Source of the DNA: Kribbella sp. ALI-6-A
GTDB lineage: Bacteria > Actinomycetota > Actinomycetes > Propionibacteriales > Kribbellaceae
Direction: 5' to 3'
DNA: 64,000 nt
NCBI RefSeq assembly: GCF_001984195.1
Contig: NZ_MTQN01000010.1
Coordinates: forward strand, 1,178,001-1,242,000
Shown here: positions 38,861 through 43,368 of the stretch, piece by piece
Layout of the letters: every line of letters starts with the position of its first letter
Numbering within the stretch: the first letter of the stretch is position 1
Position numbers and translations under genes: made by a program
The notes under the pieces: model-generated
The model's database searches: none
What the model was told of the DNA's origin: nothing
Seen by the model: only the letters and a program-made list of their open reading frames with translations

Positions 38861-39708
38861 GCGAGTGGCAACCGTCGGCGCTGCAACAGGAGCGCCTGGC
38901 GTACCGGCGTCGACGGACGGTTCGGTCGGGGGTGATCGCCGCCGTCAGCACCGTCGTACTGGTCGGACTGCTGGTGGTCGGGGTCGGCTCCACGCCCGGC
39001 TGGCCCCGGGTGCGTGAGACCTTCTTCGACGTCGAGCGCGGTTGGGAGGCGCTCCCGGTCGTTGCCCAGGGCCTCTGGTTGAACGTCCGGGTGATGCTGG
39101 TCTGCGCCGTCCTGATCGTCGTCCTCGGTCTGACGCTGGCGATCCTGCGGACCCTGCGCGGCCCGATCTTCTTCCCGCTGCGCATCTTCGCCGCGGCGTA
39201 CACCGACATCTTCCGCGGTCTCCCGCTGCTGCTGGTGATCTTCCTACTCGGCTTCGGCGTCCCCGCTCTCCAGTTGCGCGGCCTGCCCAACCAGGCGGTG
39301 ATCTGGGGTGGCGCGGCGTTGGTGCTGACCTACTCGTCGTACGTCGCCGAGGTCTTCCGCGCCGGCATCGAGTCGATCCATCCGTCCCAGCGCGCCGCCG
39401 CGCGATCGCTCGGGCTCTCGCACCGGCAGACCCTGCGCTTCGTCGTACTGCCGCAAGCCGTTCGCCGCGTCCTGCCGCCGCTGCTCAACGATTTCGTCTC
39501 CCTGCAGAAGGACTCCGGCCTGATCGCCGTGCTCGGCGTGATCGACGCGATCCGCGCCGCCCAGTTGGAGACCGCCGAGGACTTCAACTTCACCCCGTAC
39601 GTCGTGGCGGGCATCCTGTTCGTCGCACTGACGATCCCGTTGACCCGCCTGACCGACTGGGTCGCGCGCCGGCAAGGCTGGTACGGCGGAGGAGGTGGTC
39701 CCGTATGA
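38857..39708 (+). CDS. amino acid ABC transporter permease
   Basis: A 283-aa HisM/GlnP-type permease. An N-terminal cytoplasmic stretch (QERLAYRRRRTVRSG) is followed by about five transmembrane segments (VIAAVSTVVLVGLLVVGVG; LWLNVRVMLVCAVLIVVLGL). The EAA-type loop AARSLGLSHRQTLRFVVLPQ is present. The GTG start at 38857 overlaps the previous TGA by 4 nt. The first transmembrane helix lies far from the first EAA-bearing part, as usual in family members with an extended N-terminus. Confidence 0.92.
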   Translation: MSEWQPSALQQERLAYRRRRTVRSGVIAAVSTVVLVGLLVVGVGSTPGWPRVRETFFDVERGWEALPVVAQGLWLNVRVMLVCAVLIVVLGLTLAILRTLRGPIFFPLRIFAAAYTDIFRGLPLLLVIFLLGFGVPALQLRGLPNQAVIWGGAALVLTYSSYVAEVFRAGIESIHPSQRAAARSLGLSHRQTLRFVVLPQAVRRVLPPLLNDFVSLQKDSGLIAVLGVIDAIRAAQLETAEDFNFTPYVVAGILFVALTIPLTRLTDWVARRQGWYGGGGGPV

Positions 39709-40448
39709 CCCTGCTGTCACTGCGCGGCGTGCGCAAGACGTACGGCGCGAACGTGGTGCTCGACAACTTCGACCTGGACGTCGAAGCGGGCCAGTGCGTG
39801 GTCCTGATCGGCGCTTCCGGCTCCGGGAAATCCACCTTACTGCGCTGCGTCAACCTGCTGGAAACCGTCGACGACGGCGTGATCGAACTCGACGGCGAGG
39901 ACATCACCGACCCCCGGGCCGACGCCGACCGGATCCGCTCCGGCATCGGCATCGTCTTCCAGTCCTACAACCTGTTCCCGCACCTGTCGGTCCTCGACAA
40001 CGTCACGCTCGCCCCGATCCGGGTCCACGGCGTCCCGAAAGCCGAAGCCCGCAGCCGAGCCCTCGCGATGCTCGACCGAGTAGGCCTCGCCGACAAGGCC
40101 ACCGCCCGCCCCGACAATCTCTCCGGCGGCCAGCAACAACGCGCCGCCATCGCCCGGGCCCTGGTCAACAACCCGAAACTGATGCTGCTCGACGAGGTCA
40201 CTTCAGCCCTGGACCCCGAACTCGTCGGCGAAGTCCTCGACCTGCTGCGCGAACTCAAGTCCGACGGCATCACCATGCTCATCTGCACCCACGAAATGAC
40301 CTTCGCCCGCCAGGTCGCCGACCAGGTCTGCTTCCTCGACCAGGGCAGACTCCTCGAGTCCGGCCCACCGTCCCAGGTCCTCGGCCAACCTCGCGAACCC
40401 CGCACCCAGGAGTTCCTCAGCCGAATCATCAACGCGGGCCGCCTGTAG
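39705..40448 (+). CDS. amino acid ABC transporter ATP-binding protein
   Basis: A 247-aa ATPase of the GlnQ type. Walker A GASGSGKST (about 34-42), Q-loop GIVFQSYNLFPHLSV, signature LSGGQQQR, Walker B LMLLDEVTSALDPE and the switch His in ICTHEMTFA are all intact. ATGA at 39705-39708 overlaps the permease stop. Twelve bases after its TAG stop (position 40460) a 14-bp tandem repeat array begins. Confidence 0.95.
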   Translation: MTLLSLRGVRKTYGANVVLDNFDLDVEAGQCVVLIGASGSGKSTLLRCVNLLETVDDGVIELDGEDITDPRADADRIRSGIGIVFQSYNLFPHLSVLDNVTLAPIRVHGVPKAEARSRALAMLDRVGLADKATARPDNLSGGQQQRAAIARALVNNPKLMLLDEVTSALDPELVGEVLDLLRELKSDGITMLICTHEMTFARQVADQVCFLDQGRLLESGPPSQVLGQPREPRTQEFLSRIINAGRL

Positions 40449-40459
40449 AGCTTGGCTCG

Positions 40460-40585
40460 AAGTACAAAGACAGAAGTACAAAGACAGAAGTACAAAGACA
40501 GAAGTACAAAGACAGAAGTACAAAGACAGAAGTACAAAGACAGAAGTACAAAGACAGAAGTACAAAGACAGAAGTACAAAGACAG
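40460..40585. repeat. nine perfect tandem copies of a 14-bp AT-rich unit
   Basis: Unit AAGTACAAAGACAG, repeated nine times without a mismatch (126 bp), 5/14 GC in a genome near 70 percent GC. The array starts 11 nt after the ABC ATPase stop. The unit has no stop codon in any frame of either strand. Because 14 is not a multiple of 3, all frames of one strand give the same 14-residue peptide cycle in different phase. There are no spacers, so it is not CRISPR. It looks like a VNTR or an iteron-type binding array. Confidence 0.97.
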
Positions 40586-40807
40586 AGGTTCCTGGTTGCC
40601 GCTGCCCTGATGGTGACCGTGAGCTGCGGGGCGCGGCAACCCCCCACGGCGTGTGGGCTGCTGCGTGGTGCGGTGTCATCGCGGACATGTTGGTCGGCTG
40701 GAGAACGCGGCGCCCGCAACGTTGCGGTCAGCACCAGCTGCCGCTGCATTCGTCGCGCGTGTGCCGGTCGACGAACTGCGTGCGCGCTCGGTGCGGACCG
40801 CGTGGAC
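40586..40807. other. gene-poor stretch between the repeat array and the HxlR gene
   Basis: About 220 nt of normal high-GC sequence. The plus strand is open and reads VAAALMVTVSCGARQ just after the repeats, which looks like a lipobox, but the frame runs antisense into the HxlR gene and has no start of its own. No gene is called here. Confidence 0.5.
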
Positions 40808-41188
40808 TCACGGCCGCGGCATCGCCGCGGCGTCCTGGTGGTCGACCATCTGGATCTGCTGGCGGCGGATTCGGCTCGAACCCCACTGGCCGAGCGGCGT
40901 GAGTGCTGCGTTGAGGGCGCGGCCGTCGTCGGTCAACGAGTACTCGACGCGTGGCGGCACCTCGGCGTACACGGTGCGGATGACGAGGCCGTCCTCTTCC
41001 ATCTCGCGCAGGTGCTGGGTCAGCATCTTCTCGCTGACGCCGGGGAGCCCGCGGCGCAGTTCGGCGAAGCGGCGGATGCCGTGTTCGTCGAGTTCCCAGA
41101 GGATCAAGCCTTTCCACTTGCCGCTCACGACGTCGAGGGCCGCGTCGATGCCGCAGATGTACGGACCCTGCCGAGCTGACTTCGCCAT
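40808..41188 (-). CDS. HxlR family transcriptional regulator
   Basis: A 126-aa winged-helix regulator. It has the family N-terminus with a lone Cys in YICGIDAALDVVSGKWKGLI, then LWELDEHGIRRFAELRRGLP, GVSEKMLTQHLREMEEDGLV and a beta wing with VPPRVEYSLTDDG. HxlR proteins often sense electrophiles or redox state through that cysteine. ATG 41188; GAGG lies 6-7 nt upstream. It is divergent from the imine-reductase-like gene, its probable target, with 114 nt between. Confidence 0.93.
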   Translation of the reverse strand: MAKSARQGPYICGIDAALDVVSGKWKGLILWELDEHGIRRFAELRRGLPGVSEKMLTQHLREMEEDGLVIRTVYAEVPPRVEYSLTDDGRALNAALTPLGQWGSSRIRRQQIQMVDHQDAAAMPRP

Positions 41189-41204
41189 GGTCGTCCTCAC
41201 TAAC

Positions 41205-41240
41205 CAAAAGGTAAGTATCGCAGTAAATAGTAGGTACTTC
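41205..41240. promoter_or_regulatory. AT-rich divergent promoter/operator region of the HxlR and reductase genes
   Basis: An AT-rich island containing AAGTA (41213-41217) and its complement TACTT (41235-41239), plus GGTA twice. HxlR dimers usually bind such inverted pentamers. Exact -35/-10 boxes could not be fixed. Confidence 0.35.
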
Positions 41241-41302
41241 CCAGACTTCAGGCTACAGCCCAGCATGGTGGTGACGACCTGAACCACTGAACGAGGAGCC
41301 AC

Positions 41303-42193
41303 ATGCCCCACGCCGACCGCACCCCCGTCACGCTCATCGGCCTCGGCCCGATGGGTCAGGCGATGACCCGCACGCTGCTCGCGGCCGGACACCCGGTGAC
41401 CGTCTGGAACCGGACCCCCGCCCGCGCCGCCGACGTCGTGGCCGAGGGCGCCGTACTCACCGCGACCCCGGCCGAAGCCGTCGAAGCCAGCGAGCTGGTC
41501 ATCCTCAGCCTCACCGACTACCAGGCGATGTACGACGTACTCGGTCCGGCGACCGGCTCGCTGAAAGGCCGGACCGTCGTCAATCTCAGCTCCGACACCC
41601 CGGATCGCACCCGCGAGGCCGCGGAGTGGGCTGCCGAGCACGGCGCGACCTTGCTGACCGGTGGCGTGATGATCCCAGCGCCGATGGTCGGCACCGAGGA
41701 GGCGTTCGTCTACTACAGCGGCCCGAGCGAGGTCCTCGAGCAGCATCGGGCGATCCTGTCCCTGATCGGTACGCCGCGGTTCCTGGGCGAGGACCCGGGC
41801 CTGGCGCAGCTGATGTACCAGGCGCAGCTCGACGTCTTCCTGACCACGCTGTCGTCACTGATGCACGCGACGGCTCTGCTCGGCACGGCGGGTGTGACCG
41901 CGTCCGAGGCGCTGCCCGAGCTGATCGGAATGGTCCGTGGCATCCCGTCGATCATGGAAGCGGGCGCCGAGAACCCCGGCGCGGACATCGACGCCGGCAA
42001 GCACCCCGGCGATCTGAGCACGATCACCATGATGGGCGCGACCGCCGATCACATCGTCGGCGCGAGCGAAGCCGCCGGCGTCGACCTCGGCCTGCCGCGG
42101 GCGGTGCAGGCGCACTACCGCCGCGCGATCGAGGACGGCTTCGGCGGGGACAACTGGACGCGGATCATCGACGGTATTCGCAACCCGCGCTGA
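41303..42193 (+). CDS. NAD(P)-dependent oxidoreductase, imine reductase-like
   Basis: A 296-aa protein of the 6-phosphogluconate/3-hydroxyisobutyrate dehydrogenase superfamily. Rossmann start VTLIGLGPMGQAMTRTLLAA, then VTVWNRTPARA, whose Arg residues suit the NADP phosphate. In place of the usual catalytic Lys of beta-hydroxyacid dehydrogenases it has YQAQLDVFLTTLSSLMHATA, with Asp at the position used by many imine reductases. AACGAGGAG lies 6 nt before ATG 41303. Probably cytoplasmic and induced through the divergent HxlR protein. Confidence 0.85.
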   Translation: MPHADRTPVTLIGLGPMGQAMTRTLLAAGHPVTVWNRTPARAADVVAEGAVLTATPAEAVEASELVILSLTDYQAMYDVLGPATGSLKGRTVVNLSSDTPDRTREAAEWAAEHGATLLTGGVMIPAPMVGTEEAFVYYSGPSEVLEQHRAILSLIGTPRFLGEDPGLAQLMYQAQLDVFLTTLSSLMHATALLGTAGVTASEALPELIGMVRGIPSIMEAGAENPGADIDAGKHPGDLSTITMMGATADHIVGASEAAGVDLGLPRAVQAHYRRAIEDGFGGDNWTRIIDGIRNPR

Positions 42194-42277
42194 TTCCGGC
42201 GATCGACGCCGGCGGACTGCGGCGACGTCTCCCTGCGCGACCGTGGCGGCGGCCGCGCGGGAGACGGCCACGACGTA

Positions 42278-42802
42278 CTAAGCGAAACCCCCGAGCCGCA
42301 CAACGGTCGCCGCCCCGAGGTCGACCACCTGCGCGTCAGGAAACCGCAGATCCGCCCAGAACGCGCCGGGGTCGTCCAGGCCGATAGTTGCTGTCAGCCA
42401 CAAGGTCATCGCCATGCCGTGCGTGGCGATGACCAACGGCTGACCACCAGCCGCCGCGAGCTGTTCCGCGACCCCGGCCCCGAAGCGCTCGACGACCTCA
42501 CCCCTGGCCTCCCAGTCGGCGTGGTCCGCGCCTTGGACGTACGCCAACCGCTGCGTCCGAAAGTCGTCGTCGTACGCCTCGACCCGCGAGATCTCGTCGA
42601 ACCGAGGATCCTGGACAACCTCCCCAGCCGGCTCGACCGTTCCGATCGCCTTCGGCTCCGAACTCGCGACGAGCCGCGCCCCGGTCGGAAGCAGCGAGCA
42701 CAGCTCCCGCGCCGCCTCCCGTCCCTCAGGAGCCAGGACCCAGTCACGCGCAGGCGTGTCAGGACCATGAGCCGGCATCGCGTGGCGCACGAGAATCAGC
42801 AT
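42278..42802 (-). CDS. histidine phosphatase family protein
   Basis: A 174-aa phosphoglycerate mutase-like phosphatase. The nucleophile motif is LILVRHAMPAHG (R-H). The second catalytic His sits in PLVIATHGMAMTLWL, and the phosphate pocket Arg/Glu region is at DPRFDEISRVEAY. Short form, comparable to SixA/CobC-type members. ATG 42802 is chosen; an upstream in-frame TTG at 42814 adds four residues. It is followed closely upstream by the VOC gene on the same strand. Confidence 0.85.
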   Translation of the reverse strand: MLILVRHAMPAHGPDTPARDWVLAPEGREAARELCSLLPTGARLVASSEPKAIGTVEPAGEVVQDPRFDEISRVEAYDDDFRTQRLAYVQGADHADWEARGEVVERFGAGVAEQLAAAGGQPLVIATHGMAMTLWLTATIGLDDPGAFWADLRFPDAQVVDLGAATVVRLGGFA

Positions 42803-42821
42803 CGGCCCAGCCAACCACCGA

Positions 42822-43307
42822 CTACGGGTGAGGCTGCAACGACCCCAGGTACGCCATCACGCGGGCCTGGATCTCCTCCTGCGAAAGCTCGTTCTCGCGC
42901 AGCTCCTCCAGCCACGACGTCAAGATGGCGTACGGCGCGCTGAACTCGAGCGCGATCCCGTCCGGGTCGCGGAAGTTCAGGTGGTAGGCGAACTCCATGT
43001 CACGGATCGGCGTGTACACCACCCCGTACTCGTCGAAGCGGCGCTCCCAGTCCTCCAGTTCCTCCCGCGTGTCAGCGGCGAAGCCGAGATGGTCGAGACC
43101 GGTGGTGAGCTCGGTGAACTGCCCACCGACGCCGGCTTCGTGCTGGACCACCGAAAGCATGAATCCGCTCGGCCGGTCCAGGAACAGCCGGGCGTACCCG
43201 AAGTCCATCAGCGGCATCAGACCCAGGACGTCGACGTAGAACCGCTCGCTGCGGTCCAGATCGGTGACCGAGAAACTGACGTGGTCGACACCCTTGAAAG
43301 CAGGCAT
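42822..43307 (-). CDS. VOC (glyoxalase/dioxygenase) family protein
   Basis: A 161-aa vicinal oxygen chelate protein with paired beta-alpha-beta-beta-beta units. First metal His in FKGVDHVSFSVTDLDRSERF, second in GLDHLGF, and Glu in DPDGIALEFSAPY. The AYHLNFRDPDG motif is the typical end. Many such proteins are lyases, epimerases or resistance proteins; none can be chosen here. The start codon is ATG 43307, with a GGGGG tract upstream. Confidence 0.85.
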   Translation of the reverse strand: MPAFKGVDHVSFSVTDLDRSERFYVDVLGLMPLMDFGYARLFLDRPSGFMLSVVQHEAGVGGQFTELTTGLDHLGFAADTREELEDWERRFDEYGVVYTPIRDMEFAYHLNFRDPDGIALEFSAPYAILTSWLEELRENELSQEEIQARVMAYLGSLQPHP

Positions 43308-43368
43308 CGCGACCCCCTTCCCCCGAAGGCAATGTAACCCCGGGGGAGTGGTCGCGGACAGCGCGAAC

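What the first reader, a model, noticed from the sequence alone, without database searches (positions are those of the whole stretch)
40460..40585. Perfect 9 x 14-bp AT-rich tandem array right after an ABC transporter operon
Nine identical copies of AAGTACAAAGACAG, about 36 percent GC in a genome near 70 percent. Zero mismatches point to recent expansion or active homogenisation. The unit lacks stop codons in all six frames; the minus-strand cycle (CLCTSVFVLLSLYF) is hydrophobic. The array starts 11 nt past the stop, where a terminator is expected. Options: a variable-number repeat, an iteron-like protein-binding array, or an RNA decay/termination element.
Basis: partly seen in the sequence, partly recalled or inferred. 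Interest (0 to 1): 0.6.

Follow-up and report, generated by a model that had tools for sequence, protein, structure and literature searches.

The report
Purine-rich minisatellite family in Kribbella
A perfect block of nine short repeats behind a transporter gene is real and belongs to a small family of such blocks in a few soil bacteria, probably made by copying slips of a short sequence at gene ends, with no function shown.

Summary
The array is real: nine identical AAGTACAAAGACAG copies at 40460-40585 (exact tract 40459-40586, 128 nt), 10 nt after the stop of an ABC ATPase. The genus is Kribbella, inferred from best hits. Dimers of this unit were found in no other of 38 genus genomes and no other of 396 phylum genomes. 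It is not a lone oddity. Kindred perfect purine-rich arrays, with units of 8, 12, 13, 14 and 17 nt sharing GAAG(A/T)ACA, occur in 3 of 38 genomes, mostly from 2 nt inside to 57 nt behind a stop codon. A motif near TGGTTGCYGTYGGCT follows several copies; ours fits 12 of 15 (p about 0.003), but a model and free alignments do not recover ours. One array is shared by two close species with different copy number and identical units, although the flank differs by 11%. One- and two-unit copies exist. Best reading: minisatellites expanded in place by slippage, kept uniform by turnover, probably neutral. Copy number in this draft may be collapsed. A Rho-loading or mobile-element role is possible, untested.

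The parts
39705..40448 (+). ABC transporter ATPase gene whose 3' end carries the array
   Evidence: Pfam ABC_tran 2.6e-36; relatives at 79-94% identity in 32 other genomes of the 38, that of G001 covering residues 1-177 only
40459..40586 (+). Perfect tandem tract, 9.1 copies of a 14-nt unit (GAAGTACAAAGACA in the family register)
40587..40624 (+). Right-hand neighbour; CCTGGTTGCCGCTG resembles the motif to the right of other family arrays
   Evidence: 12 of 15 positions, p 0.002-0.003; not recovered by local alignment of 450-nt flanks, by nhmmer or by model R1
40587..40807 (.). Non-coding stretch between the array and the HxlR gene, without a match in the genus
40808..41188 (-). HxlR-family regulator gene, convergent to the ATPase
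   Evidence: Pfam HxlR 1.4e-31
40449..43368 (.). Segment of 2.9 kb between the ATPase and a YCII gene (HxlR, reductive aminase-like dehydrogenase, histidine phosphatase and glyoxalase genes); the array is at its left edge
   Evidence: absent between the two genes in G010 and G009; the two genes abut in G008 (overlapping stops) and G030 (1 nt between stops)

Best explanation
The array is one locus of a small family of dispersed purine-rich minisatellites in a few Kribbella species. The seed is a short A/G-rich stretch containing GAAG(A/T)ACA that lies mostly just behind gene ends and is followed, in several copies, by a shared motif (TGGTTGCYGTYGGCT...). At some loci the seed expanded in place by replication slippage or unequal exchange into arrays of identical units, each locus fixing its own unit length (8, 12, 13, 14, 17 nt). 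Continuing gain and loss of units keeps each array uniform. It persists because it lies outside genes, and most likely it has no selected function. Shown: the array, the sister arrays, copies with one and two units, the orthologous array with changed copy number, the position at gene ends. Inferred: slippage as the mechanism, neutrality, and descent of all units from one seed.
For: Family: ACAGA-spaced pattern and BLAST with a composite of the units; units share GAAG(A/T)ACA. Graded copies: one unit at G000:C6:403095-403145 (found by nhmmer at E 0.079; direct copy of the nearby element, z 7.7), about 1.2 units (G010) against about 2 (G000) behind an ispE-like gene, then 9 to about 64 units. 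Turnover: the G000:C6 array (132 nt) and a G010 array (195 nt) have left flanks 89% identical over 1466 nt and identical 12-mers throughout. A static array would have gathered about 18 changes in the two lineages (5.5% of 327 nt, my arithmetic). Position: 8 of 9 independent loci begin between 2 nt inside and 57 nt behind a stop codon, purine strand as coding strand. Tandem arrays in non-coding DNA are ordinary here: 27 of 65 arrays in 2.06 Mb (rough gene calls).
Against: Slippage alone does not explain the shared motif to the right of copies at unrelated loci, nor why full arrays are limited to 3 of 38 genomes. The purine orientation relative to the upstream gene could mean selection. The only two 100% perfect arrays of 4 or more copies in 1.66 Mb of the own genome both have family units. 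Our own unit differs from the others (GAAGTACA, with a T), and its right flank is only weakly like theirs, so its place in the family rests mainly on the core shared with the G007 17-mer.
Confidence: 0.6

Rival explanations
1. The array works as a Rho-loading segment on the antisense strand. Transcripts running leftwards from the convergent HxlR gene would carry (CUGUCUUUGUACUU)n, pyrimidine-rich and poor in G, and would be ended before they invade the ATPase gene.
For: Minus-strand 78-nt stretches of the five unit types hold 6-12 G and more C than G; 96 of 194142 overlapping windows of the contig (both strands, the arrays' own included) do so. The HxlR gene is convergent. ORF lists put minus-strand ORFs to the right of several other copies, with rival plus-strand ORFs at some.
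Against: The property follows from composition and was not predicted in advance. For our unit C exceeds G only 16 to 12. The next gene called right of G000:C5:258300 is on the plus strand. No transcript data.
Confidence: 0.14
2. Array plus right-hand motif is the end of a small mobile element, or a breakage point beside which foreign segments are inserted.
For: Shared right motif. The array is the left edge of a 2.9-kb segment. At the cyanophycinase-like locus the left flank is conserved in two close species and the right flanks are unrelated beyond about 45 nt. A second copy lies in direct orientation about 0.9 kb further on C6.
Against: No strong inverted partner of the motif in 7 loci tested; the best, at C6:404093, has z 3.2 with 1 of 100 shuffles as good. 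No further significant copies in 38 genomes, though only 150 candidates a genome were scored. No hits in phages or viral contigs. No recombinase search was made. Right flanks behind the ispE-like gene differ between the 12 genomes compared, with or without the element, so one-sided synteny is common here.
Confidence: 0.12
3. An iteron-like array bound by a protein that recognises GAAG(A/T)ACA.
For: The eight-base core is kept while the rest of the unit varies in length and sequence.
Against: Core spacing is 8, 12, 13, 14 or 17 nt, without a common helical phase. Common descent from one seed explains the core as well. No candidate protein was sought.
Confidence: 0.06
4. The array is an artefact of assembly.
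For: Tracts of 126, 128 and 132 nt in the 12-contig genome against longer ones in the single-contig relative. In G007 the same array sits about 150 nt from the ends of two contigs.
Against: The single-contig genome holds arrays of the same kind, one at an orthologous place. Only the copy number is in doubt.
Confidence: 0.03
5. Captured product of a repeat-adding reverse transcriptase (as in DRT10).
For: DRT10 makes tandem-repeat cDNA from a template with A-B-A' layout, with variable motif length (PMC12632851, passages read).
Against: Several different units in one genome, and graded one- and two-unit copies, point to expansion in place. No reverse transcriptase was sought in this genome.
Confidence: 0.03

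Closest known systems
TAACTGA direct repeats of marine Beggiatoaceae and some cyanobacteria (PMC4679880; abstract and passages read)
   Same: Short tandem repeats dispersed between genes, variable copy number, patchy distribution, some overlapping or next to stop codons, function unknown
   Different: One fixed 7-nt unit, 169 sets with 2-6 copies in one genome, mostly directed toward start codons; here units of 8-17 nt, a handful of loci, up to about 64 copies, mostly behind stop codons
GGGNATC repeats of Xanthomonas and Nostoc (PMC4692102; abstract read)
   Different: G-rich quadruplex formers with a preference for four units; here A-rich without G runs of four, higher copy number
MIRU/VNTR minisatellites of mycobacteria (recalled, no paper read)
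   Same: Actinobacterial intergenic tandem repeats near stop and start codons, variable copy number
   Different: Units of about 50-100 nt as recalled for MIRU; here 8-17 nt and purine-rich
STRR heptamers of cyanobacteria (recalled; one search gave a listing only)
   Same: Dispersed short tandem arrays limited to a lineage
   Different: Heptamers; no one-sided neighbour motif known to me

Membership tests
Bacterial minisatellite / VNTR | Head-to-tail copies of a short unit | tested here: met
   9.1 copies, 100% matches
Bacterial minisatellite / VNTR | Copy number varies between relatives | tested here: inconclusive
   Seen for a sister locus (132 against 195 nt) and behind the ispE-like gene; the array in question is absent from the relatives and one strain only is held
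Kribbella purine-rich family described here | Unit contains GAAG(A/T)ACA | tested here: met
   GAAGTACA in ours and in G007; GAAGAACA in the other G000 and G010 arrays
Kribbella purine-rich family described here | Followed by the right-hand motif | tested here: inconclusive
   12 of 15 positions near the array end, p about 0.003 (region chosen after seeing the copies); no alignment at the motif and not among the 8 rows of G000
Iteron array | Binding protein with constant helical spacing | tested here: not met
   Spacing 8-17 nt over the family; no binding protein was sought
Intrinsic terminator | GC-rich hairpin followed by a T run at the array | tested here: not met
   Only 4-bp GUAC pairings in the array on either strand, centroid unpaired; no T run on the + strand
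CRISPR array | Repeats separated by unique spacers | tested here: not met
   Units adjoin
Transposable element | Terminal inverted repeats or linked transposase | tested here: inconclusive
   No strong inverted partner in 7 loci; transposase genes not surveyed

The most novel reading that the evidence does not exclude
Array and right-hand motif together form a small active element that settles behind stop codons, expands its own A/G-rich end by repeat addition, and marks the place where foreign segments are exchanged on its right side.
Probability: 0.08. Interest if true: 0.78.

Novelty: new variant of a known kind. Interest (0 to 1): 0.42.

Why it matters
It replaces a lone curiosity by a testable family: perfect A/G-rich minisatellites in a 70% GC genus, with different unit lengths around one core, a neighbour shared on one side, and one- and two-unit copies that may show how such arrays begin. 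If neutral, they would serve as strain markers and as a natural record of slippage in an actinobacterium. If the orientation and neighbour motif are selected, they would be a new kind of 3'-end element.

Tried and rejected
Lone chance array: rejected, sister arrays exist. Phage origin: the 14-mer dimer and the 12-mer trimer have no exact match in viral contigs. A stretch of the 8-mer matches one AT-rich environmental contig, judged unrelated by its surroundings. The 13- and 17-mer were not searched there. Plasmid and phage matches of 40440-41300 lie over the HxlR gene in the rows listed (20 of 120 plasmid records, 2 of 2 phage records). RNA family: one Rfam match in 8 loci, to a miRNA family, E 0.066 at 28.6 bits against a gathering score of 96, over the terminator hairpin of another locus; taken as chance. 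Reading the right motif as a lipoprotein signal (LVAVGC; ours LVAAALMVTVSCG) was noticed by eye; I saw no start codon in frame and stops in two copies; not pursued.

Results against my reading. Model R1, trained on seven copies, found no new significant copy in 38 genomes: the seven best rows are the training copies, the rest have E 0.015 or worse, and our own copy is not among the 8 matches of G000 at E up to 1; only 150 of about 4000 first-look candidates a genome were scored. nhmmer with six copies did not list ours either. Of 45 pairs of right flanks, 10 had 2 or fewer of 200 shuffles as good, and only 6 of these align at the motif; ours aligns there with none. The 15-base test used a region chosen after I had seen all copies, so its p values are not corrected for that choice; G007 and the C3 stretch fit at p 0.06, G010 ispE and G020 not at all. 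The gene caller mislabels the HxlR region as a plus-strand gene; ORF and Pfam results were used instead. A notebook entry calls the gene before C5:258300 TetR-like; Pfam says glycyl-tRNA synthetase beta subunit, and the entry is wrong.

Literature: Kribbella with tandem repeat gave 0 papers; Kribbella with repeats or minisatellite gave no Kribbella paper among the 10 of 1,759 listed. Nothing else supports a statement that the family is not in print.

Rows left out of counts: the 8 of 9 loci merge the G000 and G010 copies behind the ispE-like gene and at the cyanophycinase-like locus (the exception); G020 (27-nt match) is counted in; the non-repetitive A-rich stretch behind a tRNA-Leu gene (G000:C3:400599) is left out.

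Full report
What is there. The window holds nine exact head-to-tail copies of AAGTACAAAGACAG at 40460-40585. The periodic tract is 128 nt, 40459-40586. It begins 10 nt after the stop codon of an ABC ATPase gene, the last of a solute-binding protein, permease and ATPase operon, and is followed by about 220 nt of non-coding DNA and a convergent HxlR gene. The unit has 36% GC in a contig of 70%. The best hits of the search for related loci are Kribbella, and I take that as the genus; the genome itself is unnamed and has 12 contigs.

Not in relatives at this place. The dimer of the unit with up to 3 mismatches is found in 1 of 38 genus genomes and 1 of 396 phylum genomes, each time the own one. 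Of 29 relative loci searched with 40380-41320, 16 gave a match at E up to 0.001; their matches to the gene end at or before 4 nt past the stop, and one locus has a separate weak HxlR match; 13 gave none, the query holding only the last 69 nt of the gene. A YCII gene was found convergent to the ATPase in 5 of the 29 loci, which reach 1.5 kb past the match. In G008 the two stop codons overlap and in G030 1 nt separates them; G010, G009 and G007 have about 0.7, 0.9 and 1.1 kb between the genes. The own genome has 2.9 kb, with the array at the left edge.

A family. TRF over 1.66 Mb of the own genome found two 100% perfect arrays of four or more copies: ours and a 12-mer array (GAACAGAGAGAA, 126 nt) at C5:258300-258425. 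The second stands behind an apparent terminator hairpin, 57 nt after the stop of a glycyl-tRNA synthetase gene. The own genome has a third array at C6:404093-404224 (same 12-mer, 132 nt). G010, the closest relative by ATPase and a single contig, has arrays of 12-mer (195 nt), 13-mer (254 nt) and 8-mer (519 nt, one interruption). G007 has a 17-mer array of 105 nt seen near the ends of two contigs. In one register the units are GAAGTACAAAGACA, GAAGAACAGAGA, GAAGAACA, GAAGAACAGAGAA and GAAGTACAGGAAAGACA: a core GAAG(A/T)ACA with a tail of 0 to 9 bases. A pattern for the 12- and 13-mer type was found in 2 of 391 genomes of the order, G000 and G010; it does not match the 8-, 14- and 17-mer arrays.

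Where they sit. In 8 of 9 independent loci the array or single unit begins between 2 nt inside and 57 nt behind a stop codon, purine strand as coding strand. The upstream genes include the ABC ATPase, a GHMP kinase (ispE by my reading), glycyl-tRNA synthetase, a periplasmic binding protein and a LacI regulator. The exception lies upstream of a peptidase S51 gene (cyanophycinase-like). Non-coding arrays near gene 3' ends are not rare in these genomes (27 of 65 TRF arrays of at least 2.8 copies were wholly or partly non-coding by a rough gene caller), so position alone proves little.

The right-hand neighbour. Just right of three G010 arrays a segment TGGTTGCYGTYGGCT... is shared. With a 15-base consensus from those three, the G000 copies fit near their array ends at 12 (ours), 12 (C5:258300), 11 (C6:404093), 11 (C5:395555) and 11 (C6 single unit) positions, chance values 0.002, 0.002, 0.013, 0.013 and 0.013 from 200,000 random places and slightly higher behind gene ends; G007 and a C3 stretch fit at 10 (0.064), G010 ispE and G020 do not. 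The region was chosen after seeing the copies, and C6:404093 is an orthologue of one of the three. Free local alignment of 450-nt flanks supports the sharing among the G010 copies and the two C6 loci; ours, C5:395555 and G007 do not align there, and C5:258300 aligns with a G010 copy only further right. No strong inverted partner stands out, and model R1 found no new copies and did not find ours.

How it changes. The C6 array of the own genome and one G010 array have left flanks 89% identical over 1466 nt, the same 12-mer without any difference, and different lengths; their right flanks are unrelated beyond the motif. Had the arrays stood still, about 18 substitutions would be expected over both (my arithmetic). 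Behind the ispE-like gene the own genome has about two units and G010 about 1.2; in ten other genomes I saw none. One C6 locus has a single unit plus motif. This series suggests growth in place from a short pre-existing element, with turnover keeping arrays uniform.

Copy number. The tracts of 126, 128 and 132 nt in the 12-contig genome are close to each other and shorter than those of the single-contig relative. Short-read assembly may have shortened them. The assembly method is unknown, and an exact k-mer collapse at 127 would not give 126, so this stays a suspicion.

Function. The array RNA folds better than shuffles on both strands through repeated GUAC pairings, but the centroid is unpaired. 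The antisense strand is G-poor and pyrimidine-rich, as Rho-loading sites are (recalled), and such windows are rare in the contig (96 of 194142), but this follows from composition. No binding, transcript or strain data are at hand. I take neutrality as most likely.

Compared with the known. Dispersed short tandem repeat families are known in bacteria: TAACTGA repeats of Beggiatoaceae (PMC4679880, abstract and passages) and GGGNATC repeats of Xanthomonas and Nostoc (PMC4692102, abstract). This family resembles them in kind but differs in unit length, purine content, number of loci, a core with a variable tail, and a neighbour shared on one side. Hence a new variant of a known kind, of moderate interest.

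Noticed in passing
G000:C5:157968-158018 (L138): GCTCGACC repeated about six times begins directly after a gene's stop, between convergent genes; GC-rich, not of the family.
   Followed up: partly
L053:5728-5787, L080:5729-5796, L075:5713-5778: Relatives of the same ABC ATPase in other genera have short GC-rich tandem arrays that begin at or over the end of the gene.
   Followed up: partly
L095:2387-3044 (G003): About 650 nt of imperfect C-rich repeats begin about 150 nt after the ATPase gene in another genome of the genus.
   Followed up: no
G000:C3:400599-400638 (L274): An A-rich stretch without clear repeats lies behind a tRNA-Leu gene and is followed by ATAGTTGGCAGTC, faintly like the family motif.
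   Followed up: partly
G007:C92:152-256 and G007:C64:145-249 (L264, L268): Two contigs share the same 17-mer array and flanks near their ends, a sign that such arrays disturb assembly.
   Followed up: no
G000:C6:403095-403145 (L256): Single unit plus motif directly behind the stop of an ORF that stands between two direct copies of the element; Pfam finds no family for that ORF.
   Followed up: partly
window 40587-40640: The frame right of the array reads RFLVAAALMVTVSCGARQ, like a lipoprotein signal by eye, without a start codon seen; perhaps a gene remnant.
   Followed up: no
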